From a virus, in the IMG/VR virus record IMGVR_UViG_3300042520_002584, positions 1 through 59,868 of that record: DNA of 59,868 nucleotides; one strand, 5' to 3'. Made by a program: the position numbers and the translations under genes. Shown here in pieces: positions 33,615-48,463 of this stretch. Numbering within the stretch: position 1 is the stretch's first letter; every line of letters begins with the position of its first letter. Below the pieces are notes generated by a model that worked only from the letters and a program-made list of their open reading frames with translations, was not told the DNA's origin and did no database searches.

Positions 33615-35480
33615 TTAATACAGACCATGTCCTGGTAATTTACCAGTTCTTGCCACATGCTGACCGAATGTTTCTTTCTTTTCATTATAATCAGGTGCTG
33701 TTTTTTTCGCTTGTAATTTCTCGTTTTTATACTGTCTCGCATTAGAAGCTAATTGACTACGTATATTAGCTAATTCTTCACGTCTAGCTGCAGGTAAAGC
33801 CGCAGTTTTCTTAGTATTTTCAGCTGAAGTATTAAATTTATGAGGCGTCATTGCTATAATACGTTCTGGTATAACTCCAACCGCTGCCATAGATTTAACT
33901 GCATCAATAATAGATTTACCAGTATCAACATTATCATCAACTAATATAATACTTTTTCCGTTTAATTTATCTGCATAATCTTCATGTAATATTTGAAATC
34001 TATAATATCCTTTACCACGATCCCCACCAGATCTAGCATACGCATTATGAATTTTAAATGGGTTTGATAATACCGCATCGTATAATGTTTCCAATGATTT
34101 ATTATATTCATTCGATAATGATTTAAGTTGAGCTTCTAAATCCTCAGCTGCTTTTAATTTAGCTGCATTATCCGGATCATCTTCCCAATTAATTAATGCA
34201 TATTCATATGCTTGTTGTAAACTATCATAATGTTTAGCAAATCTTTGAATATTAACGATATGAACTTGTTTTTGATATTGGATAGTTTCTTTACCTGATG
34301 GTCTAGTTATAGCAATATCCGCTTTAGGTAGTGAATCTCGTTTTTTACGTAAAACGTCAATATCTTTAATAATCTTTGTATATTGTGGTGTATGTCTATG
34401 TTGTTTAATAGCTAAATCGCTATCTAACTTATGAGTTCTATTATAAGTCGCTAATTCATTTAACTTCGCATTAATTTGATCTTTTAAATCAATATATTCA
34501 TCAGTTATTGCATGACGCAACGCGATTAACAATTCTTTTAATTTATCGGTTGGTGTCGCCGCATTAACAACTTCTTCACCATCATCCGCAACATTTCTCG
34601 CCGCATCACCTAAAATTCTCATTAAATCTTTAATTTGACGCAATAATTTAGTAATATTTGGCGAATAAGTATGATTATCCATCTCATCAACCATTTTAAT
34701 ATGGAAATTAGATGGTAATCTAAGTAAATCCCCATGTTTGATAGTTGTTGTCCATTTGGATAATCGGGGCCATGAATTTTTTAATAATGCACCTGATTCA
34801 ATTTGAGCTCCACCTAACCTTTCACTAAGCGTATGGGCGAACGAACTAACTAATTTAGAACTAGATGATAATGGGACAATAATGATATTATTTCTTTTTT
34901 TATCTGCTTGTTTGCCCGTTTCCATAAATGGTTGGATAAAATCGGTATACGCCTTACTAAAATCTGCTCTATCGAATCCTTTTAAAACTGGTGGTTCTTT
35001 CATAGCATTAATTAATCTAGTCACGCTATGATCAACGATAGATTGAATATCTTTCTTATCCATTAAATGTCTCGGATCGCGTTCTTTTACTGCAGACATA
35101 AACCCGTGAGTTTTTAACATTTCTTCTCTAGTTAATGGATTTTTAAATAATTGATAAGCATGAAATACTTTAATTATTTGTTGCGGTGATTTCATTTTAT
35201 AATTAATTTTTTTAGCTTCGTCGAATTTACCATCAGCTTCTAATGATTGACGTTGCTTTCTTAAATTATCCTCTAAATTCTTAAAGAAATCGCGTTCTTC
35301 TTTTGTATAATTAACTTCTAGTTTTTCACATCCCATAGTTGATAAATCGGAATTACTACCAGCTACAAACTTACCATTATCTTCCATATCATGCATAATC
35401 GGTTCATGCTTATAAACACCATCACCTTCAGGCGTTTCGCCGATCTTACTCATTTTAGTTACAACTTCACTTAATAACAT
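33615..35480 (-). CDS. Phosphoribosyltransferase-like protein with a large insert; candidate internal head protein (621 aa)
   Basis: A PRPP-binding-type loop, ILVDDNVDTGKSI, lies near residues 515-530, preceded by a hydrophobic strand as in type I phosphoribosyltransferases. An earlier strand-loop-helix, NIIIVPLSSSSKLVSSFAHTL near residue 195, looks like the start of the same fold. About 290 mostly helical residues separate the two halves. Residues 1-15 (MLLSEVVTKMSKIGE) end in I-G-E, a possible gp21 site. The C-terminus is basic and ends FGQHVARTGKLPGHGLY. Substrate unknown; transferring or splitting PRPP or nucleotides is the family's usual chemistry. It lies 26 bp after the GNAT-like gene, under the same late-type promoter. 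Confidence 0.72.
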   Translation of the reverse strand: MLLSEVVTKMSKIGETPEGDGVYKHEPIMHDMEDNGKFVAGSNSDLSTMGCEKLEVNYTKEERDFFKNLEDNLRKQRQSLEADGKFDEAKKINYKMKSPQQIIKVFHAYQLFKNPLTREEMLKTHGFMSAVKERDPRHLMDKKDIQSIVDHSVTRLINAMKEPPVLKGFDRADFSKAYTDFIQPFMETGKQADKKRNNIIIVPLSSSSKLVSSFAHTLSERLGGAQIESGALLKNSWPRLSKWTTTIKHGDLLRLPSNFHIKMVDEMDNHTYSPNITKLLRQIKDLMRILGDAARNVADDGEEVVNAATPTDKLKELLIALRHAITDEYIDLKDQINAKLNELATYNRTHKLDSDLAIKQHRHTPQYTKIIKDIDVLRKKRDSLPKADIAITRPSGKETIQYQKQVHIVNIQRFAKHYDSLQQAYEYALINWEDDPDNAAKLKAAEDLEAQLKSLSNEYNKSLETLYDAVLSNPFKIHNAYARSGGDRGKGYYRFQILHEDYADKLNGKSIILVDDNVDTGKSIIDAVKSMAAVGVIPERIIAMTPHKFNTSAENTKKTAALPAARREELANIRSQLASNARQYKNEKLQAKKTAPDYNEKKETFGQHVARTGKLPGHGLY

Positions 35481-35506
35481 ATTAAAATCTCGCTTATAAA
35501 TTAGTG

Positions 35507-36154
35507 TTAACCACTGTGTTTTTTCTGATGTAATTTTTTAGTAGATATAACTACTAATTGATGAGCTCCGCTTGGACCGTGATCCCAAATCTTATGTTCT
35601 TTTTGTAATTCAATTAAATGATGAACTGTTTTTACCAAATGAATTTGTTCTTGTTTTTTATTAAAATGATAAACATAAAATGCACCATCATGTTCGGTAT
35701 GAGTTTGTTTAACTAATTTCGCCCAATAATTCATACCCTTCGGTGTATGAAATTCATCAGTGGTAATAGTTCCGTATTTAGGTAATAACTGCTCGAATAC
35801 TAATTTACTAGGCCAACCATGGAATTCTTTTTTATGTTGTGGGCTAACCCATAAAAAATTTTGGAAAACATATCTACCTAAAATTTTATCGGTTTTAACC
35901 ACACATCTAGATAAAAAACAGACTTGTTCGTTTTTATTATCTAATCCAACATATTGGAAGTTAAAATCTTTACCTCGTTTCGCATCGATTCGAACTAATA
36001 TAATATGATCATTGATCTGCTTAATTAATTGATGCGATTGCATAATCAAAGTATCGTATAATTTATGATTATGGTCGTGATCATTAACAAATTTTTTCGA
36101 ATCAATGGGGTCAATCAATTGCGGGTTTTCAAATAATAATTCATTAAGTTTCAT
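35507..36154 (-). CDS. GNAT-like protein; candidate internal head protein (215 aa)
   Basis: Residues 1-9 (MKLNELLFE) resemble a short capsid-targeting peptide ending in L-F-E. The middle has the GNAT-like pattern seen in some phage proteins: a strand with LVRIDAKR, a strand FLWVSP, the helix WPSKLVFEQLLPKYG, then ITTDEFHTPKGMNYWAKLV, equivalent to (S/T)D...T-x-x-G-x-x-(F/Y)W-x-(K/R)L in that group. A clear acetyl-CoA P-loop (Q/R-x-x-G-x-G/A) is not visible, so acetyltransferase activity is doubtful. The C-terminus is basic and His/Lys-rich. A perfect TATAAATA lies 26 bp upstream. Confidence 0.62.
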   Translation of the reverse strand: MKLNELLFENPQLIDPIDSKKFVNDHDHNHKLYDTLIMQSHQLIKQINDHIILVRIDAKRGKDFNFQYVGLDNKNEQVCFLSRCVVKTDKILGRYVFQNFLWVSPQHKKEFHGWPSKLVFEQLLPKYGTITTDEFHTPKGMNYWAKLVKQTHTEHDGAFYVYHFNKKQEQIHLVKTVHHLIELQKEHKIWDHGPSGAHQLVVISTKKLHQKKHSG

Positions 36155-36180
36155 ACCGACCTACACCCTACAAATTTAAA

Positions 36181-36188
36181 TATTTATA
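36181..36188 (-). promoter_or_regulatory. Perfect late promoter TATAAATA
   Basis: Minus strand TATAAATA, identical to the T4 late consensus, 26 bp before the ATG at 36154. It would drive the GNAT-like and phosphoribosyltransferase-like pair late in infection. Confidence 0.65.
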
Positions 36189-36286
36189 CCAACATCGGAA
36201 TATCCTTAAAAATAAATTGAATTTTATATAAAACAATAGGTTAACCCAAAATAAACCAGACCATTACTATAATATAATATATAGGC

Positions 36287-36372
36287 TTGATGCTTGGCTT
36301 TCTCCCGAAATTTTATAAAATAATACCATAATACAATTAATGCTTGTTTTTACTACAAAATTGCTATATCAT
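36287..36372 (+). promoter_or_regulatory. Two tentative early/middle promoters for the topoisomerase genes
   Basis: The 263-bp divergent gap has two copies of TGCTTG (36291-36296 and 36341-36346), each followed 17-18 bp later by an A/T-rich -10-like hexamer (TATAAA at 36314, TATATC at 36365). TGCTT is the core of the T4 MotA box, but the spacing is longer than in T4. No late motif points toward the topoisomerase gene. Confidence 0.3.
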
Positions 36373-36417
36373 ATATACAACTAATTATGAAATAACTTGG
36401 AATTATAAAAATATCGT

Positions 36418-38304
36418 ATGACAGCACATATTAGTCAAAAATTTAAAAAGTTAGATGAGATATCTCACGTCTTATTAAGACCGGGTAGATATATTGGTAG
36501 TATCAATCCGCATACGGCTGTATCTTATACTATAGCCGATGATAAACATAAGATGATATCAGATGAACTTACTTGGTGCCCAGCATTATTAAAAATATTC
36601 GATGAGATTATTAGTAATAGTGTTGATTATTCAAAAACTGATTCAGGGACTCATTTAGATACGATTAAAGTTAATGTTGATAAAACAACCGGAGCTATAT
36701 CGGTTTATGATAATGGCGGTATTGTCGTAGTTAAACATCCGGAGCATGATCAATATATTCCGGAGATGATTTTTGAATTGCGAGCTGGTAGTAATTTTAA
36801 TGATGATGAGGATTCGACTTTAACTGGTCAAAATGGTGAAGGTGCTGCATTAACCTCTATTTTCTCGACCTCATTTATAGTCGATACGGCTGATGGTAAG
36901 AATAAATTTTTACAGACTCATACAAATAATAGTCGGGATAAGACTACTCCGATTATAAAGAAAAGTAAAGAGCATTATACTAAAATTACTTTTATTCCAG
37001 ATTATCCTAAATTAAATTTAGAAAATTTATCCGACGGCGATTTTCGTAAAATAGAAAAACGGGTTTATGATGTTGCTGGATGTAATCCTCAATTAAAGAT
37101 TTATTTTAATGATAAAAAAATAGATATTAAAAATTTCGAAGATTATATTAAGATGTACGTAGATGAATATATCTACGATCAAAATGATAATTGGAAAGTA
37201 GGTATTAGCAAATCAGATGGTGGATTTTCTCATGTTTCATTTGTAAATAGTACAGAAACTACTATCGGTGGGTTACATGTTAGTTATATAGCGGATCAAA
37301 TTATAGTTAAGTTGCGTGAGTTTATTGAAAAGAAGCATAAGATTCAGATAAAACCGAGTGAGATTAAAAATCATTTAAATTTGTTTATTAATTGTAATAT
37401 TATTAAACCTAGATATTCAAGTCAGACTAAAGAAGATATGATAACTGAAATTAAAAATTTCGGAACATCATTTGAAGTTTCTGATAAGTTTATTAAAAAT
37501 ATTATTAAGTCATCTATTGTTCAAAGTATATTAGATTGGGCCGAAGCGAAAGCAAATGCTAATTTATTAGCAGAAATGCGAAAATTAAATAAAAATACGG
37601 ATAAAGTTGATCCTAGTAAGATTATTAAATTAAATGATGCATTAGAAAAGAAAGATAGATCTAAATGTATTTTATTTTTAACTGAGGGAGATTCTGCAGC
37701 CAAGGCTGTTAGTAGTGCTAGAGACCCACAATTGCACGGTATTTTTCCATTAAAAGGTAAGCCAGTTAATGTAAGTACCGTTAAACCTAGAAATTTAATG
37801 GATAATGAAGAATTTCAGAATATATTAACAATAACTGGATTAAAAATCGGAGAAAAGATAACTGATGTAAAGCAATTGCGTTACGGTAAAATATGTTTTT
37901 TAACCGATCAAGATTTAGATGGATTGCATATTAACGGTTTATTAATTAATATGATCCATACATTTTGGCCTGAGTTATTTGATTTAGGTGTTATCCATAG
38001 ATTTAAAACGCCGTTAATTAAAGTAACTTGCGGTAAGGAGTTAATTGAATTTTATGAAGAACAAGATTTTATTAAATGGAAAAATAAAACTACTAAAAAA
38101 TATACATCGAAATATTTTAAGGGGTTAGGTACTAGTACAGCAGCGGATTTTAAAACTTACTTAGCTAATTTCGATAAGAATTTAATTAAGTATGAGATTG
38201 ACGATGTAACGGATGCGGACGCGATTAAATTAGCATTTAGTAAAGATAATGGTAAAACTGGCGAACGTAAAAATTGGTTAAACATTTTAGGCACTGACGA
38301 ATAG
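36418..38304 (+). CDS. gp39: Type II DNA topoisomerase large subunit, T4 gp39-like (628 aa)
   Basis: ATPase and TOPRIM subunit of the phage topoisomerase, which relaxes DNA and supports replication. The GHKL ATPase is visible: DEIISNSVD at 62-70, DNGG near 98, and TGQNGEGAAL near 138. The TOPRIM part has TEGDSAAKAV near 421 and LTDQDLDG near 495, with PLKGKPVNV between, so metal-binding acidic residues are present. It is a single uninterrupted gene covering regions that T4 splits between genes 39 and 60. The medium subunit follows 430 bp downstream in the same direction. Confidence 0.96.
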   Translation: MTAHISQKFKKLDEISHVLLRPGRYIGSINPHTAVSYTIADDKHKMISDELTWCPALLKIFDEIISNSVDYSKTDSGTHLDTIKVNVDKTTGAISVYDNGGIVVVKHPEHDQYIPEMIFELRAGSNFNDDEDSTLTGQNGEGAALTSIFSTSFIVDTADGKNKFLQTHTNNSRDKTTPIIKKSKEHYTKITFIPDYPKLNLENLSDGDFRKIEKRVYDVAGCNPQLKIYFNDKKIDIKNFEDYIKMYVDEYIYDQNDNWKVGISKSDGGFSHVSFVNSTETTIGGLHVSYIADQIIVKLREFIEKKHKIQIKPSEIKNHLNLFINCNIIKPRYSSQTKEDMITEIKNFGTSFEVSDKFIKNIIKSSIVQSILDWAEAKANANLLAEMRKLNKNTDKVDPSKIIKLNDALEKKDRSKCILFLTEGDSAAKAVSSARDPQLHGIFPLKGKPVNVSTVKPRNLMDNEEFQNILTITGLKIGEKITDVKQLRYGKICFLTDQDLDGLHINGLLINMIHTFWPELFDLGVIHRFKTPLIKVTCGKELIEFYEEQDFIKWKNKTTKKYTSKYFKGLGTSTAADFKTYLANFDKNLIKYEIDDVTDADAIKLAFSKDNGKTGERKNWLNILGTDE

Positions 38305-38312
38305 GTAACATT

Positions 38313-38486: not shown

Positions 38487-38487
38487 G

Positions 38488-38745: not shown

Positions 38746-40039
38746 AGATTTTTTTGATAATGAATTCAAGCAATTTTCTATTGCTGATTGTATACGTTCT
38801 ATTCCCTCAGTCGTTGATGGATTTAAACCATCGCAACGAAAATGTATCTTCGGAATGATTAAACGTGGTGAAAATGCGGGCGAAATTAAGGTAGCTCAGG
38901 TTTCTGGGTATATATCCCAAGTAAGTGATTACCATCACGGCGAAGCCAGTTTAAACGAGACTATAGTAGGTTTAGCGCAGAATTATACTGGTAGTAATAA
39001 TATTAATTATTTTAAACCAAATGGCCAATTCGGAAGCCGGTTATCTAGTGAGTCATCGGCTCCTCGTTATATTTTTACTGAATTTACTGATAATTTTAGA
39101 AAAATATTTAAAAAAGAAGATGATATTATTTTAAATCATTTAGATTCTGATGGGCAATCAATCGAACCCGATTATTATTTACCTATATTACCAAATATAT
39201 TAATAAATGGGGCGCGAGGTATGGGAACTGGTTATGCGACTCATATATTAAAATATAATCCAATAGAATTAAAAGAAAATATATTAGCTTTGTTATCGGG
39301 CAAAGAACCGCAGCAATTAATGCCTTGGTATAATGGTTTTAAAGGAACCATTAGTATGAATGGTGATCAAGTTTTAAATATAGGCGTTTATGAAATAGTA
39401 AATTCAACGACCATTAGAGTTACTGAATTACCTATCGGCATTTATCAAGATGATTATAAAGCCCACTGTATTAAATTACAGGAACAAGGTCTTATTAAAG
39501 ACGTAGATGATAGGTCAACTGAATCATCATTCGATTATATTTTTAATGTTCCTAGAACAACGACTCAATTACCGCATGACGCAATATTAACTAAATTTAA
39601 ATTAATAGGTAAGGATACCCAAAATTTAACTGCGTGGACGGAAGATGGCTTTATTAAAGTTTTTAAACAAGTTCAGGATATTATTGATTATTTTGTCGCA
39701 TTTAGATTAGAGAAATACGAAGAACGTAGAATTAAATTATTAGAAATACTAAACGAAGAATTAGTTTGGTTATCGGAAAAGCGTAGATTTATTAATTGGT
39801 ATATTGAAAATAGTAAGTTATTTTCAAGTAAAAGTAAAAAAGAATTAGAACAATTATTAACTGAAAATAATTTTAATCATATTAATGATTTGTTAGATAT
39901 ACGCTTGTATCATTTAACGAAAGATGATATATTTAAGCTAGATAAAAATATAGAAAGAATTGAAAAAGATATACAAGCATTAGAAAAAACTAATTGTATT
40001 AAAATGTATAAAAAAGAACTAGCCGAGCTAGAAATATAA
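38735..40039 (+). CDS. gp52: Type II DNA topoisomerase medium subunit, T4 gp52-like (434 aa)
   Basis: DNA-cleaving subunit that pairs with the gp39-like protein. The winged-helix DNA-breakage domain is clear: IPSVVDGFKPSQRKCIFGM at 23-41, HHGEASL at 67-73, FGSR near 99-102, and SSAPRY with catalytic Tyr112. The downstream tower region GARGMGTGYAT near 165 and the C-terminal coiled coil (residues 330-434) are typical, and length is close to T4 gp52 (442). It lacks the C-terminal beta-pinwheel of bacterial GyrA, as expected for phage topoisomerases. Confidence 0.96.
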   Translation: MKVKDFFDNEFKQFSIADCIRSIPSVVDGFKPSQRKCIFGMIKRGENAGEIKVAQVSGYISQVSDYHHGEASLNETIVGLAQNYTGSNNINYFKPNGQFGSRLSSESSAPRYIFTEFTDNFRKIFKKEDDIILNHLDSDGQSIEPDYYLPILPNILINGARGMGTGYATHILKYNPIELKENILALLSGKEPQQLMPWYNGFKGTISMNGDQVLNIGVYEIVNSTTIRVTELPIGIYQDDYKAHCIKLQEQGLIKDVDDRSTESSFDYIFNVPRTTTQLPHDAILTKFKLIGKDTQNLTAWTEDGFIKVFKQVQDIIDYFVAFRLEKYEERRIKLLEILNEELVWLSEKRRFINWYIENSKLFSSKSKKELEQLLTENNFNHINDLLDIRLYHLTKDDIFKLDKNIERIEKDIQALEKTNCIKMYKKELAELEI

Positions 40040-40111
40040 AATGATTAGTTAAGTTAAATATATGTGTTAGTTGAGGTTTTTTTTATTATTAATGTTATTT
40101 AAGGATAGATA

Positions 40112-40468
40112 ATGAGTATAGATAATAAACTTTGTTTAACCGCCACCAAAACCGGACTTCCCGGAATTATAACGATTTATACTAAAGATTGTAATGGATT
40201 ACCGATTAAATATATACCAGATAAAAACGAACCCGATGTTTATATTACTATGTCACCTAGAGATTATCGGTATGCTTGCAATTCATATCCTATTGATTGG
40301 GAATTATTAGATAAATTTACGATGTGGGTAATAACCCAAACTAAAAATATATTATCTTATCATTATTTTGGGGCTGACATGACAAAATCAGAACTTGATG
40401 ATTTACTTAGTTTGATCCATCCATTAACTGACGATGAAATATCGACATTAAATAAACGCAGAATATAA
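40112..40468 (+). CDS. Hypothetical protein (118 aa)
   Basis: No family recognised. The sequence looks globular and soluble, with beta-rich residues 1-50 (GIITIYTKDC), then a helical part (DWELLDKFTMWVITQTKNI) and a charged end. An AAGGAT Shine-Dalgarno lies before the ATG, and the gene ends directly at a strong terminator, so it is likely the last gene of the topoisomerase transcript. Confidence 0.7.
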   Translation: MSIDNKLCLTATKTGLPGIITIYTKDCNGLPIKYIPDKNEPDVYITMSPRDYRYACNSYPIDWELLDKFTMWVITQTKNILSYHYFGADMTKSELDDLLSLIHPLTDDEISTLNKRRI

Positions 40469-40493
40469 AAAAGGGGCTTTTTAAGCCCCTTTT
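40469..40493. terminator. Bidirectional intrinsic terminator
   Basis: Perfect 11-bp stem (aaaaggggctt / aagccccttttt region) with loop ttt. T runs follow on both strands, so it ends the plus-strand topoisomerase operon and the convergent minus-strand gene ending at 40498. Confidence 0.92.
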
Positions 40494-40497
40494 GTTT

Positions 40498-41742
40498 TTA
40501 TTTTTTAGATTTTTTTTTGGCTTTTTCTTTATTTAAATCTTCCTGCCATTTAGGAACCCATTTTTCTTTTTTGGCTTTTTTGATCGCTTTATCAACTGAA
40601 CCTTTATATTCATCAGTTCCTGATTCAATTTTACCATCGCCGTCATAGTCTTTGCTTGCTTTTTTAGCTTTCGATTTAGCTTTAGATTTTGATTTCCCCA
40701 TACAAGCTTCATTCATAATACGTTCTGCAACTAATTTAAGTTTTTCTTCGTATGATAAATCAGATGATTCATTAATAATTACAGTTGATGTAATTGAATC
40801 ATCGAGTGTTGATAAGAAAGAAAATTCGCCGAATGATTCACGAACACCTTCTTCGCCGTCAACATGATAATGCTTTTTAATTAATATATTTAAAAGATCT
40901 TTATAACCTTCAAATTGACTTAAGTATGTAATATCGCCGGGGACTTTAATAATATTTTCATTCTTTTCGTTTTGGAATTCGTTTTTAGCAACAATGATAC
41001 AAAATTTACGAACTGATGTACTAGTTGGATTCGAACTGGCACTTTTACCGGCCCAAATAACGATAACGTCATTCTCACCACCTGAATTATAACTATCAAA
41101 CAAATTATCACTACTATCGACCGCAGTACACCATTTTACTTTACCTTCAGAATCAAAAGGACGTAAGAATGTTTGGCCGAATTGAATCGATTGTTGTTTA
41201 CTACCTAATTTAACGGCATAAAAGCCTTCGTGATGTGGATCATTAATAATAACTTGACCGTAAGCGCCAAACCCACCTTTATTAACTATACGAGTTAATG
41301 ATGATTTTGCGGTTGAAGTTTTAGCAAATTGATCTAATATGTGAGTAAACTCATGAAAATCATTATATGCTGGGTTATTAATATCATTTTGCGGTAAATT
41401 AGCTGAATGAGTTTCAAAATAAGCTAATTCCTCTTTAACTGCTTTAAATTGATTTAATGAGAAGCTATTAGGCTGAGCATACCATTGGCAAATACGTTTT
41501 AAGTATTTTGCTTTAGTTGCCGGAGTAACCATATGCAAACCAATCCATTTAATAACTTCTAATGAAGTTTGTAAATTTTCTGCACCTAATCCTTCGGGTA
41601 AACGTTTAGCTTCAGATTGGTATTTTTGCCAAACTGGTAAGCTGATACTTTTATCATTATTAATATCATCTTCTTTTGCTTCGAGTAACAATTGACTTTC
41701 GGATAGTAATCCAGCCAATTGTAAAATGCGATCTAATTCCAT
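40498..41742 (-). CDS. WCTA-motif protein with basic tail; candidate internal head protein (414 aa)
   Basis: No named family. Residues 1-21 contain two (L/I)-x-E sites (GLLSE at 11-15, LLLE at 18-21), fitting a removable capsid-targeting peptide. Near residue 204 there is a KWCTAVD motif followed by Y(N)SGG...VIVIW, a pattern I know from phage proteins of unknown role (R/K-WCTA...Y...(L/V)-x-(V/I)). The tail from about residue 350 is very lysine-rich (KSKSKAKSKAKKASK) and includes DYDGDGKIES, a calcium-loop-like D-x-D-x-D motif common in phage head-associated proteins. The tail suggests DNA binding. The late-type motif upstream and the divergent gp21 gene place it with head genes. Confidence 0.7.
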   Translation of the reverse strand: MELDRILQLAGLLSESQLLLEAKEDDINNDKSISLPVWQKYQSEAKRLPEGLGAENLQTSLEVIKWIGLHMVTPATKAKYLKRICQWYAQPNSFSLNQFKAVKEELAYFETHSANLPQNDINNPAYNDFHEFTHILDQFAKTSTAKSSLTRIVNKGGFGAYGQVIINDPHHEGFYAVKLGSKQQSIQFGQTFLRPFDSEGKVKWCTAVDSSDNLFDSYNSGGENDVIVIWAGKSASSNPTSTSVRKFCIIVAKNEFQNEKNENIIKVPGDITYLSQFEGYKDLLNILIKKHYHVDGEEGVRESFGEFSFLSTLDDSITSTVIINESSDLSYEEKLKLVAERIMNEACMGKSKSKAKSKAKKASKDYDGDGKIESGTDEYKGSVDKAIKKAKKEKWVPKWQEDLNKEKAKKKSKK

Positions 41743-41775
41743 TGCGTGATACCTATTAAAATATATGAATTATGA

Positions 41776-41783
41776 TATTTATC
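41776..41783 (-). promoter_or_regulatory. Late-type promoter motif GATAAATA (minus)
   Basis: Minus strand GATAAATA, 33 bp before the ATG at 41742; one half of a divergent pair with 41796. Confidence 0.58.
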
Positions 41784-41795
41784 AGTAGATTCGTT

Positions 41796-41803
41796 GATAA
41801 ATA
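41796..41803 (+). promoter_or_regulatory. Late-type promoter motif GATAAATA (plus)
   Basis: Plus strand GATAAATA, 24 bp before the ATG of gene 21. The two facing copies lie 12 bp apart, an inverted arrangement. Confidence 0.58.
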
Positions 41804-41827
41804 TTTGGATATTCTAATATTTAACGG

Positions 41828-42484
41828 ATGACGTACAAAATGAAAACACAATTTTTAGTTGAGACTTTGACCTACGATCAGGGTAATTTGATCCAAGAAT
41901 CAGTCGTAGATACCGAAGGTAAAAATTTATACTTATCTGGTTGCTTTATGCAAGCAGAAACAAAAAACAGAAACGGTAGAATTTATCCAATTACTGAAAT
42001 GCAAAATGCCGTTGCTAGATTAACTGAACAAATTAAACAAACCGGCGGTGTTTGGGGTGAATTAGATCACCCACCATCATTACAAGTAGCTAGCGATCGA
42101 GTAAGCCATGTAATACAAGAATTACGAGTTGAAGGTAATAATGTTTATGGTAAAGCTAAAATTCTAAATACTCCAATGGGCCAAATCGCTAAAGTTTTAA
42201 TTACTGAAAGTGGTGTTAAACCTGGCGTAAGTAGCCGTGGTGCAGGAGAAGTAAACGAGCAAGGTATAGTAAGTGGATTTAATTTAATTACGGTTGATAT
42301 AGTTGGAACACCAAGCTGCGCAAGCGCATATCCAACATCAATTTATGAATCATTAGATGAATCAGTTAAAGGTCGTCGTATTTTAACACTAGCTGAATCA
42401 GTACAAGAAGATCAATCAGCTCAAAAATATTTAGTGACTGAAATTAAAAAATGGTTGGATAGTAGTTTATTTGTAAAAAAATAA
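41828..42484 (+). CDS. gp21: Prohead core protease, T4 gp21-like (218 aa)
   Basis: Serine protease that matures the prohead by cutting after (L/I)-x-E in capsid, scaffold and internal proteins. Catalytic signatures are visible: GELDHP with His81, and PGVSSRG with Ser135 or Ser136 as nucleophile; TVDIVGTPSC (about 159-168) is the usual following strand. NRNGRIYP at 47-54 is also typical. Length matches T4 gp21 (212). The ATG at 41828 is used; a second ATG at 41840 (MKTQFLVE) is possible, and LVE there could be a self-cleavage site. In T4 it sits next to gene 22; here it is 13 kb away on the other strand. Confidence 0.95.
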   Translation: MTYKMKTQFLVETLTYDQGNLIQESVVDTEGKNLYLSGCFMQAETKNRNGRIYPITEMQNAVARLTEQIKQTGGVWGELDHPPSLQVASDRVSHVIQELRVEGNNVYGKAKILNTPMGQIAKVLITESGVKPGVSSRGAGEVNEQGIVSGFNLITVDIVGTPSCASAYPTSIYESLDESVKGRRILTLAESVQEDQSAQKYLVTEIKKWLDSSLFVKK

Positions 42485-42491
42485 GCAGAAA

Positions 42492-42514
42492 AATGGGGGC
42501 TAAAAGCCCCCATT
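42492..42514. terminator. Bidirectional intrinsic terminator
   Basis: Perfect 10-bp stem (aatgggggct / agcccccatt) with loop aaa between convergent genes gp21 and phoH. T-rich stretches are short on the plus strand (ATTGTT) and better on the minus strand (TTTTTC). Confidence 0.85.
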
Positions 42515-42518
42515 ATTG

Positions 42519-43202
42519 TTACTGAGAATAAGCGATTAAGATATCTTTACAAATACCAGAACGAACAACATCGTCGATTGTAAAATTAACCCATCCGACG
42601 TTATTAACTGATTTTAATCTAGTTAATGCGTCAGCTAAGCCCGATTCACCTTTTATATCAGATTGAACAACATCACCATCAATAATTACTTTGCAATTTT
42701 CCCCAATGCGAGTCAAAAACATTTTCATTTGAGCTGGAGTTGTATTTTGTGCTTCATCTAATATAACAATAGCATCTTCAAATGTAGAACCACGAAGATA
42801 AGCCAATGGTTTAGCTTCGATGATTTTGCGCTTAATAAGATATTCGGTAAATGATTGGCCTAATCGTTTATTTAATATCGATATAATCGGATCAAAATAC
42901 GGTGCAATTTTTTCCTCTAATTCGCCAGGAAGATGCCCTAATTTTTCACCCGCTTCTACTATAGGTCGAGTAATAATAATTTTCGAAATACGTTTTGCTT
43001 TTAACTGCTCGGCCGCATAAGATAATGCGACATAAGATTTACCAGTACCAGCAACACCAACCCCAAAGGTTAAAATGTTGTGTTTAATTGAATTCAAATA
43101 CCGATGTTGAGTATTTGTTAATGTTACAATTTCCTTTGGTTCTAATTCCAACAATTCATTTGGTTGTTGATCTCGTTTAACGCGTTTCGTAGTTTTCGAC
43201 AT
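42519..43202 (-). CDS. phoH: PhoH-like ATPase (227 aa)
   Basis: P-loop ATPase of the PhoH family, common in phages and linked to RNA metabolism or phosphate stress. Walker A GVAGTGKS at 49-56, RPIVEAGEKLGHLPG near 80-94, Walker B VILDEAQN near 145-152, and the downstream TRIGENCKVIIDGD segment give the complete ATPase core. It is a stand-alone ATPase domain without the PIN or KH domains of some bacterial relatives. Its late versus early expression is unclear; no late motif precedes it, and it follows the terminator of the acidic core gene. Exact substrate unknown. Confidence 0.94.
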   Translation of the reverse strand: MSKTTKRVKRDQQPNELLELEPKEIVTLTNTQHRYLNSIKHNILTFGVGVAGTGKSYVALSYAAEQLKAKRISKIIITRPIVEAGEKLGHLPGELEEKIAPYFDPIISILNKRLGQSFTEYLIKRKIIEAKPLAYLRGSTFEDAIVILDEAQNTTPAQMKMFLTRIGENCKVIIDGDVVQSDIKGESGLADALTRLKSVNNVGWVNFTIDDVVRSGICKDILIAYSQ

Positions 43203-43260
43203 TATTTTGATCCCTCAGTTAGTACCGCAACAATATCGAATTATTTATTCCCGTAAAAAG

Positions 43261-43287
43261 AAAAAGCCGATTAAAAATCGGCTTTTT
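43261..43287 (-). terminator. Intrinsic terminator after the acidic core gene
   Basis: Perfect 12-bp stem (aaaaagccgatt / aatcggcttttt) with loop aaa, followed on the minus strand by TTTTTCTTTTT, 30 bp after the stop at 43317. Confidence 0.9.
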
Positions 43288-43316
43288 ATCTAACTAAATA
43301 TTTAAATATTTAGTTA

Positions 43317-43652
43317 TTATCTCATGCATTCTTCGTCTTCGTCTTCGATTGAATCGTCGTCTTCGTTGTCTGCATCAAAATCATCTTCATCTGAATATTC
43401 ACGATCTTCATAATTCTCATCGTCATCTTCATCTTCTTCTTTATCTTCATCTTCATCTGAATATTCAGCATCTTCATCATCTTCTTCTGATGATTCGCCT
43501 TCTTCATCTGAATATTTGTCTTCGTCTTCGTCTTCATCTTCTTCGATGATTTGTTTGAATTTACCAGTCAAATAATCATGGAATGCACTTTCAGCTAATG
43601 CATCATCTTTTTTTAATACTGCATCAAGCATTTCAGCTAATTTTTCAGTCAT
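43317..43652 (-). CDS. Acidic prohead core protein, T4 gp67/gp68-like (111 aa)
   Basis: Residues 1-36 are helical (MTEKLAEMLDAVLKKDDALAE) with (L/I)-x-E sites at 5-7 and 19-21 that the gp21 protease could cut. The remaining 75 residues are almost purely Asp/Glu with recurring YSDE units. T4 gp67, a prohead core protein cut to highly acidic peptides, has the same layout: a short helical N-terminus then a long acidic tail. Similarity of such low-complexity tails is not proof of descent, so the assignment rests on layout and a late-type promoter 49 bp upstream. Confidence 0.72.
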   Translation of the reverse strand: MTEKLAEMLDAVLKKDDALAESAFHDYLTGKFKQIIEEDEDEDEDKYSDEEGESSEEDDEDAEYSDEDEDKEEDEDDDENYEDREYSDEDDFDADNEDDDSIEDEDEECMR

Positions 43653-43701
43653 TTGGTTAACTCCTAATTGGTATTATAGTAGGGTAAAAAATATAATTAT
43701 A

Positions 43702-43709
43702 TATTTATC
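43702..43709 (-). promoter_or_regulatory. Late-type promoter motif GATAAATA (minus)
   Basis: Minus strand GATAAATA, 49 bp before the acidic core gene; divergent partner of 43741. Confidence 0.55.
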
Positions 43710-43740
43710 TTACCCATTATGGAATAGATATATTTAGCCA

Positions 43741-43748
43741 AATAAATA
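43741..43748 (+). promoter_or_regulatory. Late-type promoter motif AATAAATA (plus)
   Basis: Plus strand AATAAATA, 33 bp before the ATG of the tape-measure gene. Confidence 0.55.
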
Positions 43749-43781
43749 TGTAATAAGTTAATTTTGATTAGGTGATATTTA

Positions 43782-46700
43782 ATGGCAGCTCAAGACGCAA
43801 CCTCCCTATTTACGCAATTTTTATATGAAGCCGCTAGACAACAAAGTTCAGTAGCATCAATTACTGCAGATGCAGTGGCAGAAGTTGCCGAGTTTAATAC
43901 TCGCATGAGAGGAGCTAGTAAAAGCGCCAAAGAAACATTTTCTGCATTAGATAATCTTAAAGCTCAGATAAAAGAAGTTAATAAACAGCAACAAATTGCG
44001 GCGAGAAGTACAGATACATTATCAAAATCATTAGATAAAAATTCATCTAAATTTACACAATATTCACTTAATGCTATTAGATCATTAAGAGCTGCATCAG
44101 AAGAATTTCAAAAAGCAGCTGCATCATCAAGTGCTTATTTTAAAAAATCATTAAACCCATTAGAAAATATTATAACATTAAAAAAGTTTACTGATGCTCA
44201 AGCAACATTAGTTAAATCTTTAAATGCTAGTGCCGGTTTAATAACTAACGAAAATTATAATATAGTTAAACGTTTTGTCGATATGGGTAAATCAGCGAAT
44301 ATTATGTCGACTGCATTTAAAGATATCGAAACACAATTTAATAATACGACTAAAGCCACAATGGAAGCAAATGCATCCATACTTGGTAGTATATCAGCAG
44401 CAGATTTTGCAACTAGACAAGCGGCATCAATTTTATTAAGAGATGCAAAAGAAAATCAAACCAAATATAATAAAGTTTTCGATGATGCAACTAATGCATT
44501 AGAAAAAATGGCAAAAGATTTACATAATGTTGATTTAACTCAATCATTATCTAGTCAATATAAAAATATAACTGATTTTTATAATAGTTACAAACGATCA
44601 TTACGCCAATTAAATGATGCTGGGATGGATTCTAATGATGCGATAGCTAAATTAAACAGCGATCAGCGATTTGTTATTTTTGATCAATCGATTGCTAACT
44701 TAATAGACGCATTAAAAGATAATGCCGGCGTTTTAAATAACGTAACAAAAGAAGCCGCTGAAAAATACTTAGCTGCAGGCCAAACAGCCGGAACAATCAA
44801 TGATGTTTCAGCTAATCCGATGACTAACTTTTTAAATACCGGTAATAGAGTAGATCAAACGGTTATACAAGAATTAGAGCGGCAAATTACTCAATCAATG
44901 GTTGAAATGCGTAATACTTTAGCTAATCTATTAGGAACTACTCAATTAGAAATAAGTAAACGATTAATAGATCAAGCCGAATTATCAAATAAATCATTAA
45001 CTAAAATATTAGATGAATTAACTGATACTGCTAAAGGGGTATTTTATAACTGGGATAAGATGAATTCTGAATTTTCATCTGAATTTACTAAACACATGCA
45101 AAGTCTTGGTTTATCATTTAATGGTTTAGATGAGGGTATTGTAAAATTAAGACGATACGGTGATTTGCACGAAGCTACTATGAAAGAATTAATCCTTAGT
45201 GGCGGATATATTAACGAAGCAAATGCGGTTAAATTAGAAAATTATGTAGCGTTTGCTGCTAGTATGAAATTAATTACGCCGGAAATCGAAGAATTATGTG
45301 AAAAATTGCATCAATTTAATAGTGATGGTTCGGCAGGCCCCATTAGTAATGGAGTATTAGAGCGATTAGAAGAAGTTAGTAATCAAATACAACATGGTTT
45401 AATTAAAACATCGGATGCATTTGCGAAGCATAATAAAACATTTAGTTCTATTTTATCTAGAAATTTAAGAGAACAAGGTGGTATATTTAGTAATTTTATT
45501 GCGGATATGGCAGATGTTCGCCGAACTGGTACCACTTCTGACGGTAGAGATCGAGGTGATGTAATAGCCGGATTTAAAGGCCAAATAGCCGCGAATTTAA
45601 TACCAGCGATTAAAAAATTCTTTGAAGAAAATATATCATATATTCAAGGTAGAGCCGTCGGTCAAAGTCGATTTGTTGGTGGAGTTGATCGCGGTTTTAT
45701 GAGTGATATGCAAATTGGTGAACCCGATTACTTTAAACTAATGCAAGAAAACAGATCAACTGCATTAGCAGCTGGTGGAAATGAAGCATTTAAAGCTAAA
45801 TTAGCTAGCCAACGAGACGTTTGGGAACAAATATTAGGACCACTACCGAAAGATATATTAGAAGCATCATTGCAGATGGAGCAGATTAATCAAGCCATCG
45901 GCGGTGCAATGAATGAGCAAGATATAAGAAATTATCAAAGAAGTATTCAAGCGAATAATTATATGTTTGGTGCTGATCCAAAAGCCCAACAAGCCGCTAC
46001 ATCAGCTATTGTTAAAACGACTAATGCACAACGGATGTTAGCTGGATTAGATGATAAATTAGCTAAAAAGAAAGTTGAAGAAATAGCATCACATTTCGCA
46101 TACGCAAAAAGTTTAAAAATGTCTGATGAAGCTGCTCAGCAATTCGCTGAAGCGATGGCTATCGGTTCTAAAATAATGACGCCCCAACAAAGCGCAGAAG
46201 CTACCGGCGGCATGATGAATTTAATCGGTATATTACAACATGCCGGCGAATTACAAGACATAACATCAGCTGATAAACGCCGCGCGGCAGAAATTGCAGG
46301 AAAAGGTCCAGAATTAGCAACCGAAGACGAAATGAATTTTATGCGCGAGTTAATTCGAAAAATTGAATTAGCTAAAGCAGAGTATACTCAATCAAAACGA
46401 GATTCATCAGGATATGTGTCTGGAGTCGATGCTAAACAAATTGGTAATTTAAATAGATTAATGGATGAATTTAAATCTAAATTACCAGAAGCATTTCAAA
46501 TAGCAGGTGAAGCAATCGGTGGTACATTATCGACTGCAAAAAAATCACCAATTGCTTCGCCGGGTATGAATATACCGGAAGAACAAAAAAAATTAATACC
46601 ATTATTAACTGATATGAGTTTGCAGAATCAACAAACTTTTATAGAGCGTATTGCTAGTGCGAATGCAACATTAAAAGCATGGACTGATACATTAGGTGGT

Positions 46701-47279
46701 AGTACGGTTTCTAGTGCAGCGAATACTGCATTAAATATTGGTGGGACTGCATTATTAACTAGAATGATGATGGGCGCAGGTGGGGCTGCTGTTGCTGAAG
46801 GTGTAGTTGGTGCGTTAGCTGTTGGTGGTGTGGTTGCAGCGATTGCCGCTATTTTAGTCGGTGGTGGATATTTAGCATCCGAATACTTATCTGAGGGTAA
46901 AGGTTCTAAGAGTATGTCATTACCCGGGGGTGATGCAGAATCACCAACCAAAACACAACGACATGCGACTGGCGGTTCTGGATATAAACCATATAATAGT
47001 GGTACCACTGAAACAATACCAACTGAAACTGGACGGCAAAATGCGGTTATACCTAGTGAGGTAATAGCAAATGCTGGAGATGATCAAATAGCTAAAATGA
47101 TTGAATTATTGGGTGATATTAAACAAAATGATGCGAATATGGCTATTAAAAAATTCAATAACTCATTTGATGAAGTGGCGAAGATTATAAAAACTTGGTG
47201 GGACGAGAAACAAGCTGAACTCACCCCACCTATTAAACCAACTGATAATAGACAACCACCGGCAGCTAAAACAAATTAA
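43782..47279 (+). CDS. Probable tail tape-measure protein (1165 aa)
   Basis: Recognised by architecture: long alpha-helical, Ala/Lys/Asn-rich sequence, coiled coil in residues 30-130, and a glycine/alanine hydrophobic segment near residues 975-1036 (GGAAVAEGVVGALAVGG, AAIAAILVGGGYLA) of the kind tape measures use to cross the host membrane. The end is polar and proline-rich. It lies upstream of the hub and wedge genes and has its own late-type promoter. T4 gp29 (590 aa) is half as long; if length scales at about 1.5 angstrom per residue the tail would be near 170 nm. No peptidase motif was seen. It could also be another large structural protein. Confidence 0.75.
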   Translation: MAAQDATSLFTQFLYEAARQQSSVASITADAVAEVAEFNTRMRGASKSAKETFSALDNLKAQIKEVNKQQQIAARSTDTLSKSLDKNSSKFTQYSLNAIRSLRAASEEFQKAAASSSAYFKKSLNPLENIITLKKFTDAQATLVKSLNASAGLITNENYNIVKRFVDMGKSANIMSTAFKDIETQFNNTTKATMEANASILGSISAADFATRQAASILLRDAKENQTKYNKVFDDATNALEKMAKDLHNVDLTQSLSSQYKNITDFYNSYKRSLRQLNDAGMDSNDAIAKLNSDQRFVIFDQSIANLIDALKDNAGVLNNVTKEAAEKYLAAGQTAGTINDVSANPMTNFLNTGNRVDQTVIQELERQITQSMVEMRNTLANLLGTTQLEISKRLIDQAELSNKSLTKILDELTDTAKGVFYNWDKMNSEFSSEFTKHMQSLGLSFNGLDEGIVKLRRYGDLHEATMKELILSGGYINEANAVKLENYVAFAASMKLITPEIEELCEKLHQFNSDGSAGPISNGVLERLEEVSNQIQHGLIKTSDAFAKHNKTFSSILSRNLREQGGIFSNFIADMADVRRTGTTSDGRDRGDVIAGFKGQIAANLIPAIKKFFEENISYIQGRAVGQSRFVGGVDRGFMSDMQIGEPDYFKLMQENRSTALAAGGNEAFKAKLASQRDVWEQILGPLPKDILEASLQMEQINQAIGGAMNEQDIRNYQRSIQANNYMFGADPKAQQAATSAIVKTTNAQRMLAGLDDKLAKKKVEEIASHFAYAKSLKMSDEAAQQFAEAMAIGSKIMTPQQSAEATGGMMNLIGILQHAGELQDITSADKRRAAEIAGKGPELATEDEMNFMRELIRKIELAKAEYTQSKRDSSGYVSGVDAKQIGNLNRLMDEFKSKLPEAFQIAGEAIGGTLSTAKKSPIASPGMNIPEEQKKLIPLLTDMSLQNQQTFIERIASANATLKAWTDTLGGSTVSSAANTALNIGGTALLTRMMMGAGGAAVAEGVVGALAVGGVVAAIAAILVGGGYLASEYLSEGKGSKSMSLPGGDAESPTKTQRHATGGSGYKPYNSGTTETIPTETGRQNAVIPSEVIANAGDDQIAKMIELLGDIKQNDANMAIKKFNNSFDEVAKIIKTWWDEKQAELTPPIKPTDNRQPPAAKTN

Positions 47280-48403
47280 CGGGGTGGTTGTCCCTGCGGT
47301 TGTTGTTGTGGTTGACCTTGCTGTTGTTGTGGATTACCTTGTGGTCTTCCGCCAGCTGATTGTTGTTGCTTATTAATATTTAAAAGTTGATTTTGTAATC
47401 TTTTAACTTGATCATCATAAACTTTCATAGCACGATTTTTACGAACATTTAAATCTGCGATTTGAGTTTGAATACGTAATTCATCATCATTAATATCTTC
47501 ATTAATATCTTTTAAATCAGAATGCATAAAATCTAAAATTGACATGGCTCCCTCGTAAGTAGCATTATTGTTTATTTCACTTCTGTATTTTGCTAATTTA
47601 GCAACACGTTCTTGTTCTTTTTTATCATCGTTTTGTTTTTTAAAATGTTCTTCTGCCCGCAACATATCTTCTTCATTCTTAACTTTAATATTAGACATTT
47701 GAATAGATAATTTCGCTTGCTCAGCTTCCGCTTCTTTAGCTTTCGCATTAGACTCCGCCGTTTTAGCATCAGCGTCTGCTTTTAACATATCAATAACTTT
47801 TAATAATAAACTTGAGCTATCTTCTGGTTGACCAATTTCTTGAGGAGTATTATCATCTGGTTTAATATCACCTTCTGTTCCAGGTTCACCCTCGGGAGGC
47901 ATTTCACCTTCGTCACCTTCTGGTGCACCTTCTGGGTTATCTAATTTATTATCAACTTCTTCATCTTCTGGTAATTTAGGCCATTCGACGAATAAGATAT
48001 TAAATGAATTGCGTAAATTAAATAAAATTTCAGCAACATCTAAAGTTTGATCATCATCTAAATACTCACCTAATGCTCTTTTAAAAGCTTCGTCTTGTTC
48101 TTTATCGATATAAACTTTAGTAATATTACCTTCGGCGTCTTCGATACCATAAGCAATAGAGTTATCTTTTAATTTATTTTCTTTTTCCGCGCCATTTAAT
48201 TTTGATAATACATCTTCAGCACTGAACTCATCAGATTTAACAACTGATTCAAAAAATGTTTTTAATCTTCTTTTTTTGCCCTTTTTGGCGGCACTACCAT
48301 CTCGAGTTATCATACCGAATAGCGAACCTCGGGTTCCAGCAACATTACCAGCTGATACACAACCCGCCTCCCCATCTTCTCTTAAAAATTCTGAAAAAAT
48401 CAT
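47276..48403 (-). CDS. Coiled-coil protein; candidate internal head protein (375 aa)
   Basis: No named family. The first nine residues, MIFSEFLRE, closely match the pattern of the T4 internal-protein capsid-targeting peptide MKTYQEFIAE, with cleavage expected after L-R-E. A short basic patch (KKGKKRRLK, about 40-48) follows, then a globular part to residue 140, an acidic Pro/Glu linker (about 140-200), a long coiled coil (about 205-345) and a Gln/Pro-rich end. Its stop codon shares bases with the stop of the tape-measure gene. The late-type motif upstream is paired with one for the next gene. Confidence 0.68.
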   Translation of the reverse strand: MIFSEFLREDGEAGCVSAGNVAGTRGSLFGMITRDGSAAKKGKKRRLKTFFESVVKSDEFSAEDVLSKLNGAEKENKLKDNSIAYGIEDAEGNITKVYIDKEQDEAFKRALGEYLDDDQTLDVAEILFNLRNSFNILFVEWPKLPEDEEVDNKLDNPEGAPEGDEGEMPPEGEPGTEGDIKPDDNTPQEIGQPEDSSSLLLKVIDMLKADADAKTAESNAKAKEAEAEQAKLSIQMSNIKVKNEEDMLRAEEHFKKQNDDKKEQERVAKLAKYRSEINNNATYEGAMSILDFMHSDLKDINEDINDDELRIQTQIADLNVRKNRAMKVYDDQVKRLQNQLLNINKQQQSAGGRPQGNPQQQQGQPQQQPQGQPPR

Positions 48404-48452: not shown

Positions 48453-48455
48453 TAC

Positions 48456-48463
48456 TATTTATT
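48456..48463 (-). promoter_or_regulatory. Late-type promoter motif AATAAATA (minus)
   Basis: Minus strand AATAAATA, 52 bp before the ATG at 48403 and only 3 bp from the plus-strand motif. Confidence 0.55.

What the first reader, a model, noticed from the sequence alone, without database searches (positions are those of the whole stretch)
33615..48403. Candidate capsid-targeted internal (injected) protein set: four proteins behind late promoters with N-terminal (L/I)-x-E peptides
Seen: four proteins of uncertain function begin with short peptides ending in (L/I)-x-E: MIFSEFLRE (375 aa, minus from 48403), MKLNELLFE (215 aa, from 36154), MLLSEVVTKMSKIGE (621 aa, from 35480) and a LLSE site at 12-15 (414 aa, from 41742). 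Three have a late-type promoter motif directly upstream and the fourth is second in such an operon. A gp21-like protease is encoded here, and the gp22- and gp23-like proteins also carry such sites. Known: T4 internal proteins carry a ten-residue capsid-targeting peptide (MKTYQEFIAE in IPIII) cut by gp21 after (L/I)-x-E, and are injected. Inference: this phage packages a phosphoribosyltransferase-like, a GNAT-like, a WCTA-motif and a coiled-coil protein. Their basic regions fit packaging with DNA.
Basis: partly seen in the sequence, partly recalled or inferred. Interest (0 to 1): 0.82.

Follow-up and report, generated by a model that had tools for sequence, protein, structure and literature searches.

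The report
Head-targeting tags on jumbo-phage proteins
This T4-like virus appears to mark a set of its own proteins with short removable N-terminal tags that load them into the virus head, probably for injection into the bacterium together with the DNA, and the same kind of tag turns up on related proteins in several other large phages.

Summary
The four peptides are there as stated, but bare (L/I)-x-E is weak evidence: it does not separate MS-detected from other PA5oct proteins (17/92 vs 56/358, p=0.30). Homologues are strong evidence. The 375-aa family keeps [LIVM]-x-E in 15/15 (other ORFs 33/106); the 414-aa 'WCTA' family keeps hydrophobic-hydrophobic-x-E in 17/19 (17/119). The 215-aa family keeps L-x-E-x-P in 4 of 5 with varying leaders; the fifth is leaderless, on a record with no detected S77 protease. 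In 621 IGE-15 is not conserved; LSE-5 is. A distant homologue of 414 is annotated as detected in PA5oct virions. Outside the window the same virus has five more such proteins, including a tandem trio related to an 11-gene array in jumbo phage Atu_ph07. A fuller N-terminal signature from this virus is in excess in six related records (22/968 vs 3.7 expected) and in Atu_ph07. Best reading: T4-type capsid-targeting leaders on new cargo. Packaging, cutting and injection in this virus are inferred; cargo functions are open.

The parts
47276..48403 (-). 375-aa acidic protein of a family found in several large phages
   Evidence: relatives; [LIVM]xE kept in 15/15
48377..48403 (-). leader MIFSEFLRE with predicted cut LRE-9|D
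   Evidence: L7 and E9 invariant in alignment A3 of three; 19 of 31 loci listed
48456..48463 (-). late-promoter-like AATAAATA, 53-60 nt upstream of the 375-aa start
   Evidence: genome-wide excess
40498..41742 (-). 414-aa protein with the WCTA domain and Lys-rich C-terminus
   Evidence: homologue in PA5oct annotated ESI-MS/MS structural protein
41680..41742 (-). leader MELDRILQLAGLLSESQLLLE with possible cuts LSE-15 and LLE-21; E21 is the Glu invariant among homologues
   Evidence: alignment A4, 17 sequences
41776..41783 (-). late-promoter-like GATAAATA, 34-41 nt upstream of the 414-aa start
35507..36154 (-). 215-aa protein of family phrog_1349 (function unknown)
   Evidence: homologues in G018, G019, G027 and Atu_ph07
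36128..36154 (-). leader MKLNELLFE with predicted cut LFE-9|NP
   Evidence: M1 L3 L7 E9 P11 invariant in alignment A6 of four; a fifth homologue is leaderless
36181..36188 (-). late promoter TATAAATA upstream of the 215-621 gene pair
33615..35480 (-). 621-aa protein with weak C-terminal phosphoribosyltransferase-like match (residues 505-556)
   Evidence: homologues in G018, G019
   Evidence: L3 E5 T8 invariant in alignment A7 of three; the start of the third is uncertain
41828..42484 (+). gp21-like S77 prohead protease (possible start at 41840), the predicted processing enzyme
   Evidence: Peptidase_S77 E=6e-28; phrog_207 E=1e-59
26599..27999 (-). gp23-like major capsid protein
   Evidence: Gp23 E=3e-92
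28059..28994 (-). gp22-like scaffold candidate (MNEILKKLLAE start), the predicted docking partner
   Evidence: position next to gp23 and late promoter; only a weak scaffold-family match (phrog_237, E=0.93); assignment is inference
43317..43652 (-). very acidic small protein, gp67-like core candidate
   Evidence: composition and late promoter; likeness to gp67 (N-terminus printed) is inference

Best explanation
The N-terminal peptides are T4-type capsid-targeting propeptides. Late in infection the proteins are made from ATAAATA promoters; a short amphipathic leader (5-21 residues, ending in L/I-x-E) docks them on the scaffold core while the prohead forms; the S77 protease (41828-42484) then cuts after the Glu, releasing them inside the head, and at least some are injected with the DNA. 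SHOWN here: leaders and late promoters; conservation of the cut motif with variable leaders in the 375, 414, 215 and P-loop families; over-representation of the N-terminal signature in S77 phages; virion detection, as annotated, of one homologue in PA5oct. INFERRED: docking, cutting, retention and injection in this virus. Most likely cargo: 215, 414 and probably 621. The 375-aa protein is more likely a cleaved core or structural protein. The set continues outside the window: in G001, the same virus (the protease and all four proteins at 100% identity), three tandem 186-199-aa proteins, a P-loop kinase-like protein (235 aa) and a 337-aa protein.
For: (1) Families: 375, [LIVM]xE in 15/15 vs 33/106 other ORFs on the same loci (p=2e-7); WCTA, hhxE in 17/19 vs 17/119 (p=1.2e-10); A4, E21 invariant in 17/17 with leaders of 9-21 residues; 215 family, E9-x-P11 in 4 of 5, leaders of 9-13 residues; P-loop family, L7 E9 G10 invariant in the four aligned, including marine phages HTVC008M and Melnitz-3; 621 family, L3 E5 T8 in three aligned. 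(2) Signature M[KR][LI]x[EQDN][LIVMF], taken from this virus (G001 6/94 vs 0.55 expected, circular): six other S77 records 22/968 vs 3.74, with LxE following 15/968 vs 0.75 (p=0.001); Atu_ph07 9/878 vs 2.8, with LxE 7/878 vs 0.45 (p=0.001). (3) PA5oct: signature in 7/92 MS-detected vs 3/358 other ORFs, p=9e-4. (4) PA5oct EST35_0205, homologue of Paride's WCTA protein, starts MKLFEVFTLYE and is annotated 'structural protein, ESI-MS/MS'. (5) Late promoter on 24/65 ORFs vs 3.1 expected. (6) T4 Alt, IPII, IPIII and gp24 start with comparable peptides; Alt is cut at ITE-6 and the first 10 residues of IPIII suffice for packaging (passages of PMC5694885 and PMC9026906).
Against: No proteomics exists for this virus that I know of. 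The bare motif does not predict virion proteins in PA5oct (17/92 vs 56/358; [LIVMF]xE at 8-13: 15/92 vs 43/358, p=0.18). The six-residue signature was fixed after seeing the PA5oct MS list; restricted to ORFs of 100 aa or more it is 4/86 vs 1/171 (p=0.04); the pattern fixed earlier gives 2/92 vs 0/358, p=0.04, and M[KR] plus LxE 6/92 vs 6/358, p=0.02. Only 215 of the four carries the signature. One 215 homologue (L212) has no leader. In G007 the signature is not significant (1/66 vs 0.13, p=0.13). S77 was found in only 3 of 21 WCTA contigs and 7 of 12 contigs of the 375 family, and gp23 in 3 of 21 and 4 of 12; completeness of these records is not given. 621 and the trio have no conserved LxE later than E5. 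The two non-S77 controls have little power: CcrBL9 0/514 vs 0.36 expected, SPO1 part 1/133 vs 0.22. The family members counted are partly related to each other. The ESI-MS/MS label is the record's note; no mature N-terminus was seen.
Confidence: 0.72

Rival explanations
1. Leaders target and are cut, but the proteins are only prohead core or structural components that stay in the head or are lost; nothing is injected as an effector.
For: 375 is acidic (-25) and lies beside the tape-measure-like gene; by my reading its homologues lie beside head and tail genes. In T4 the core proteins are cut by gp21 as well (passages of PMC9026906).
Against: 215, 621 and 414 carry enzyme-like or unknown domains and are patchily distributed: of 13 related records only G001, the same virus, has 414, 621 or 215; of 18 further records 3 have 215 and 2 have 621.
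Confidence: 0.3
2. The N-terminal similarity is only a common helix-forming start (M-K/R-L-x-E-L-L) with no link to head targeting.
For: The bare motif gives little enrichment, and one 215 homologue does without a leader.
Against: Column-shuffle excess in S77 phages; a Glu conserved across leaders of different length in several families; enrichment among MS-detected proteins (pattern fixed after seeing the list). Two relatives without such a leader lie on records with no S77 match: the WCTA relative of CcrBL9 and L212; with two cases this is only a hint.
Confidence: 0.15
3. The peptide is part of the folded WCTA or 215 domain, conserved for structure.
For: In the WCTA family conservation runs on past the Glu, and the low-confidence model draws helices at 2-12 and 15-29.
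Against: The leader before the Glu varies in sequence and length (9-21 residues). In the model of a tandem-trio protein residues 1-9 have pLDDT under 50 while later blocks lie between 78 and 98. Several unrelated families share the peptide type.
Confidence: 0.12

Closest known systems
T4 internal proteins IPII/IPIII and Alt with their capsid-targeting sequence
   Same: Short N-terminal peptide ending in [LI]xE, S77 protease, late promoter; Alt's site at residue 6 matches the E5-type leaders here
   Different: Cargo domains differ, leaders vary in length (5-21) and sequence; IPII and IPIII start MKTYQEFIAE, here mostly M-K/R-L-x-E or unrelated starts
Cleaved head proteins of giant phages phiKZ, 201phi2-1 and SPN3US
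   Same: Head-packaged proteins with propeptides cut by an S77-type protease (passages of PMC5694885, PMC9026906)
   Different: Many of those propeptides are far longer (over 100 residues) and the sites are S/A/G-x-E (phiKZ) or A-x-E (SPN3US); here leaders are T4-sized and L/I-x-E
Virion proteins of jumbo phages PA5oct (Arenbergviridae) and Atu_ph07
   Same: Homologues of 414 (PA5oct, annotated MS-detected), of 215, of the trio and of the P-loop protein (Atu_ph07), with the same kind of leader where I looked
   Different: In what I read of the Atu_ph07 paper (passages and section 29) they are not described as tagged or injected; which of gp53-gp63 were detected I could not see
Phage-packaged ADP-ribosyltransferases (Alt/VIP2, MuF fusions; PMC9503650, passages and section 27 read)
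   Same: Idea of head-packaged enzymes acting first in infection
   Different: Packaging there is inferred from gene context and MuF fusions; here from a cleavable leader. ADP-ribosyltransferase identity of the trio is only suggested

Membership tests
T4-type capsid-targeted internal proteins | Short N-terminal peptide ending in (L/I)-x-E | tested here: met
   375 LRE-9, 215 LFE-9, 414 LLE-21/LSE-15, 621 LSE-5
T4-type capsid-targeted internal proteins | Cut motif conserved among homologues while the leader varies | tested here: met
   15/15 (375), 17/19 (414), 4 of 5 (215); for 621 only E5, in 2 of 3 with caller's starts, 3 of 3 with an upstream start
T4-type capsid-targeted internal proteins | S77 prohead protease in the same genome | tested here: met
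   14 of 15 related or comparison records; but only 10 of 33 further records of unstated completeness
T4-type capsid-targeted internal proteins | Late expression | tested here: met
   late-promoter motif upstream of three; 621 second in the same-strand pair; expression itself not measured
T4-type capsid-targeted internal proteins | Protein present in the virion | tested here: inconclusive
   Annotated as detected for a homologue of 414 in PA5oct; nothing for this virus or the other three
T4-type capsid-targeted internal proteins | Leader removed by the protease | not testable with these tools
   needs N-terminal proteomics
T4-type capsid-targeted internal proteins | Injected into the host | not testable with these tools
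   needs infection experiments
T4-type capsid-targeted internal proteins | Sequence homology of the mature protein to IPI-III or Alt | not tested
   no direct comparison run; no such family appeared in the Pfam and PHROGs scans
Phosphoribosyltransferase (621 aa) | Pfam Pribosyltran above cut-off | tested here: not met
   22.7 bits, cut-off 26.3; a VDDN...G loop is conserved in three homologues
GNAT acetyltransferase (215 aa) | Match to a GNAT family | tested here: inconclusive
   no GNAT family listed in Pfam or PHROGs scans; no structure predicted
ADP-ribosyltransferase (tandem trio outside the window) | ADP-ribosyltransferase fold | tested here: inconclusive
   good model (pLDDT 87); Foldseek best E 0.78; VIA-align Z 5.5 (rmsd 2.9, 83 aligned) and 4.5 to Arr, 6.5 (rmsd 3.7, 127 aligned) to a protein of unknown function

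The most novel reading that the evidence does not exclude
A cleavable head-targeting leader works as an open loading system across many S77-protease phages, from T4 to marine and jumbo phages, letting unrelated proteins be swapped into the head. In the window virus and its relatives it loads a cocktail: WCTA-domain protein, phosphoribosyltransferase-like protein, P-loop kinase-like protein, and tandem arrays (3 in this virus, 11 in Atu_ph07) of possibly ADP-ribosyltransferase-like proteins. Conserved leaders could then be used to predict injected proteins from sequence alone.
Probability: 0.5. Interest if true: 0.8.

Novelty: new variant of a known kind. Interest (0 to 1): 0.62.

Why it matters
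What large phages inject in the first minutes of infection is mostly unknown, because virion proteomics exists for few of them (my general knowledge). A leader that can be recognised across homologues turns this into a sequence question and gives a list of candidate take-over and anti-defence proteins. It also names an uncharacterised family (WCTA) as probable head cargo and points to the 11-gene Atu_ph07 array, which by my count lies inside a cluster of virion-protein genes, as a testable case of amplified cargo.

Tried and rejected
Bare (L/I)-x-E as a criterion: rejected. Other patterns tried: B (PA5oct 2/92 vs 0/358), C (PA5oct 3/92 vs 6/358, p=0.27), R1 (6/92 vs 6/358, p=0.02).

GNAT for 215: no family match. 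Exact T4 late promoter TATAAATA: only 4 in the window against 26 expected, so the first base had to be left free. tblastn against annotated phages found nothing for 621 and 215.

WCTA structure: model poor (pTM 0.40); no PDB fold match with E under 1; profile search of solved structures gave nine rows, all partial matches to designed or repeat proteins (best E 8e-10). Pfam: one weak YfiO match in 1 of 17 members, none for the window protein; PHROGs: two families of unknown function in 15-16 of 17, none for the window protein, and a 'virion structural protein' family in 1 of 17. Its activity stays open. ADP-ribosyltransferase for the trio: the profile found nothing in the PDB; no such family listed beyond Arr, PARP-type and OspC-type rows at Z 5.5 and below; suggestive only.

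A shared I-L-x-L-A-G peptide (414 N-terminus, scaffold-candidate C-terminus, PA5oct EST35_0203) was looked at: it also occurs in CcrBL9 and is too rare to judge.

Literature: no paper in the held library held all of 'capsid-targeting', 'phage', 'injected' and 'effector' from 2015 on; 'capsid targeting' with 'jumbo phage' gave two SPN3US papers; other searches. I make no wider claim that this is unpublished. Papers seen: passages only of PMC9026906, PMC5694885, PMC7824862, PMC9391042; passages and one section each of PMC9503650 and PMC6102473; all others search listings.

Rows left out: of 29 WCTA loci, 20 were read; one search counted 19 (L148 for the window virus, plus 18 of those 20; L160 and L174 dropped as near-copies; L149, L150, L153, L167, L168, L171, L175, L176 not read, judged near-copies from their match lines). 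One search aligned 16 of the 20 plus the window (L156, L160, L163, L173 left out). Of 31 loci of the 375 family, 19 were read and 15 counted. Of the 11 Atu_ph07 array genes 8 were put into alignment A1. L212 was left out of alignment A6 and is told above. In A6 the L210 start was set four codons downstream of the one my ORF caller chose; in A7 the L209 start was set upstream of the caller's. One of 93 MS-marked PA5oct genes was not called and not counted.

Changes after re-checking: confidence lowered from 0.74 to 0.72 for the leaderless L212 and the uncertain L209 start.
Full report
OBSERVATION. The window is a 59,868-base virus record. The same virus is on a 107,037-base contig, G001 (the protease and all four proteins match at 100%), which by the matched coordinates carries about 15.7 kb beyond the window's end. 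The late promoter here is ATAAATA with a free first base: 24 of 65 ORFs carry it 15-75 nt upstream against 3.1 expected and 6 of 65 on the opposite strand. Among the 24 are the protease, the capsid gene, the scaffold and tape-measure candidates and the 375, 414 and 215 genes. The 621 gene follows 215 on the same strand without a motif of its own.

IS THE MOTIF MORE THAN CHANCE? Taken alone, barely: [LI]xE ending at residues 5-16 occurs in 242 of 1062 ORFs of seven related records against 195.5 expected, and it does not separate MS-detected from other PA5oct ORFs (17/92 vs 56/358, p=0.30). A fuller N-terminal pattern, M[KR][LI]x[EQDN][LIVMF], was taken from this virus (G001 6/94 vs 0.55, so circular there). 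In six other S77 records it gives 22/968 vs 3.74 expected by column shuffling, and with LxE following 15/968 vs 0.75 (p=0.001); G007 alone is not significant (1/66). In Atu_ph07, not used to set it, 9/878 vs 2.8 and with LxE 7/878 vs 0.45 (p=0.001). The two controls without an S77 gene (CcrBL9, tested) or with another protease (first 99 kb of SPO1; protease type from its annotation, S77 not searched) show no significant excess (0/514 vs 0.36; 1/133 vs 0.22), but so little is expected there that they have little power. Among PA5oct proteins marked ESI-MS/MS it occurs in 7/92 vs 3/358 (p=9e-4), for ORFs of 100 aa or more 4/86 vs 1/171 (p=0.04). This pattern was fixed after I had seen that list; the one fixed before gives 2/92 vs 0/358, p=0.04. 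Of the four proteins only 215 carries it.

HOMOLOGUES. 375 family: 15 of 15 members counted have [LIVM]xE with E at 6-16, against 33 of 106 other ORFs on the same loci; leaders range from MIFSEFLRE, MKFIDFLQE and MRLTDYLNE to short ones such as MRKIAE. WCTA family: 17 of 19 have hydrophobic-hydrophobic-x-E with E at 8-16 against 17 of 119 (p=1.2e-10); in a 17-sequence alignment at 17-25% identity to the window protein the Glu aligned to E21 is invariant and is the only invariant residue in the first 100. These members are partly related to each other, so the p-values overstate independence. 215 family: M1 L3 L7 E9 P11 invariant in four, leader 9-13 residues. A fifth, L212, aligns from residue 38 on and has no leader; its record (G027, 70 kb) has no S77 and no gp23 match, and the WCTA relative on the same record (L155) is one of the two that miss the motif. 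621 family: L3 E5 T8 conserved in three, with an uncertain start in the third; IGE-15 is not conserved. P-loop family outside the window: L7 E9 G10 in four. Tandem trio: E5 invariant in nine sequences from three contigs, two of them near-identical.

VIRION EVIDENCE. The 414-aa protein matches a Paride protein at 26% over 177 residues (E=7e-7); that protein's PA5oct homologue (61.8%) starts MKLFEVFTLYE and is annotated as a structural protein detected by ESI-MS/MS. Atu_ph07 has 11 consecutive genes all starting M[KR][WL]x[QD]LxE; one trio member finds 6 places in this record by tblastn, and 8 of the 11 were aligned with the trio. By counting back from gp70 I place them at gp53-gp63 (inference), inside CDS 31-76, where 29 proteins were identified in virions (PMC6102473, section 29). 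Which of the 11 were seen I could not check. The first of the 11 also holds a P-loop region, so the two cargo types are fused there.

MECHANISM. T4 gives the precedent: the first ten residues of IPIII suffice for packaging, targeting and cutting depend on different positions, and Alt is cut at ITE-6 (passages of PMC9026906 and PMC5694885). T4 Alt, IPII, IPIII and gp24 start with peptides of the same make. The leaders here fit two shapes: a long one cut at residues 9-21 (375, 215, 414, P-loop) and a short one with E5 like Alt (621, trio). Docking, cutting and injection in this virus remain inference.

CARGO. 414: WCTA domain, no known family or fold. 621: phosphoribosyltransferase-like loop, sub-threshold, conserved in homologues. 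215: phrog_1349, unknown. Trio: confident model, ADP-ribosyltransferase resemblance only suggestive. P-loop: AAA_33 and Zeta_toxin above their cut-offs; kinase-like, substrate unknown. 375: acidic, near head and tail genes by my reading, probably a core or structural protein.

AGAINST. No data on virions of this virus; S77 found in only 3 of 21 WCTA contigs and 7 of 12 contigs of the 375 family, of unstated completeness; a leaderless 215 relative; several leaders lack a later LxE; the MS label is the record's annotation and shows no mature N-terminus.

VERDICT. A T4-type capsid-targeting system on new cargo, well supported by conservation and by one annotated virion homologue, unproven by experiment. 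The concept is known; its reach, the WCTA family as cargo and the tandem arrays are the part I did not find described in what I searched and read.

Noticed in passing
L062:1724-4150 (G001, about 11.6-14 kb beyond the window's end): Four consecutive ORFs with M[KR]LxE[IL] starts: three tandem paralogues (189, 199, 186 aa) with an invariant R-G and E, then a P-loop kinase-like protein (AAA_33, Zeta_toxin hits).
   Followed up: yes
L142:9485-20593 (Atu_ph07 39484-50592): Eleven consecutive genes with near-identical 8-residue starts (such as MRWEQLTE) and diverged bodies; similar starts at about 304.8 kb (MKWHQLTED) and 290.4 kb (MKWQDLSEGIKVYHGS).
   Followed up: partly
L212:1495-2079 (-), record G027: Leaderless relative of the 215-aa protein on a 70-kb record with no S77 or gp23 match; the WCTA relative on the same record (L155) also misses the motif. 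A possible natural case of lost leaders together with a lost protease.
   Followed up: partly
window 28059-28994 and 40498-41742: The scaffold candidate ends in ILRLAGLG and the 414-aa protein begins MELDRILQLAGL; PA5oct EST35_0203 (MS-marked) begins MFNINDILRLAGV. Possibly a shared docking peptide.
   Followed up: partly
window, whole: TATAAATA occurs 4 times against 26 expected from dinucleotide shuffles: strong avoidance of the perfect late-promoter octamer.
   Followed up: no
window 29466-30131: Stand-alone SIR2-family protein (E=1e-40), a possible NAD-using enzyme near the capsid genes.
   Followed up: no
window 3330-9099: No ORF was called here on the strand of the neighbouring tail-fibre-like genes, unlike the flanks.
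   Followed up: no
L173:1479-3902: 808-aa WCTA relative whose start (MKDFFDYLTEDAPANNVGSGEIAGVG) joins a head-targeting-type leader to a stretch resembling the mature start of the 375-aa family.
   Followed up: no
window 43317-43652: 111-aa protein with a long Asp/Glu run, resembling T4 gp67 in composition.
   Followed up: no
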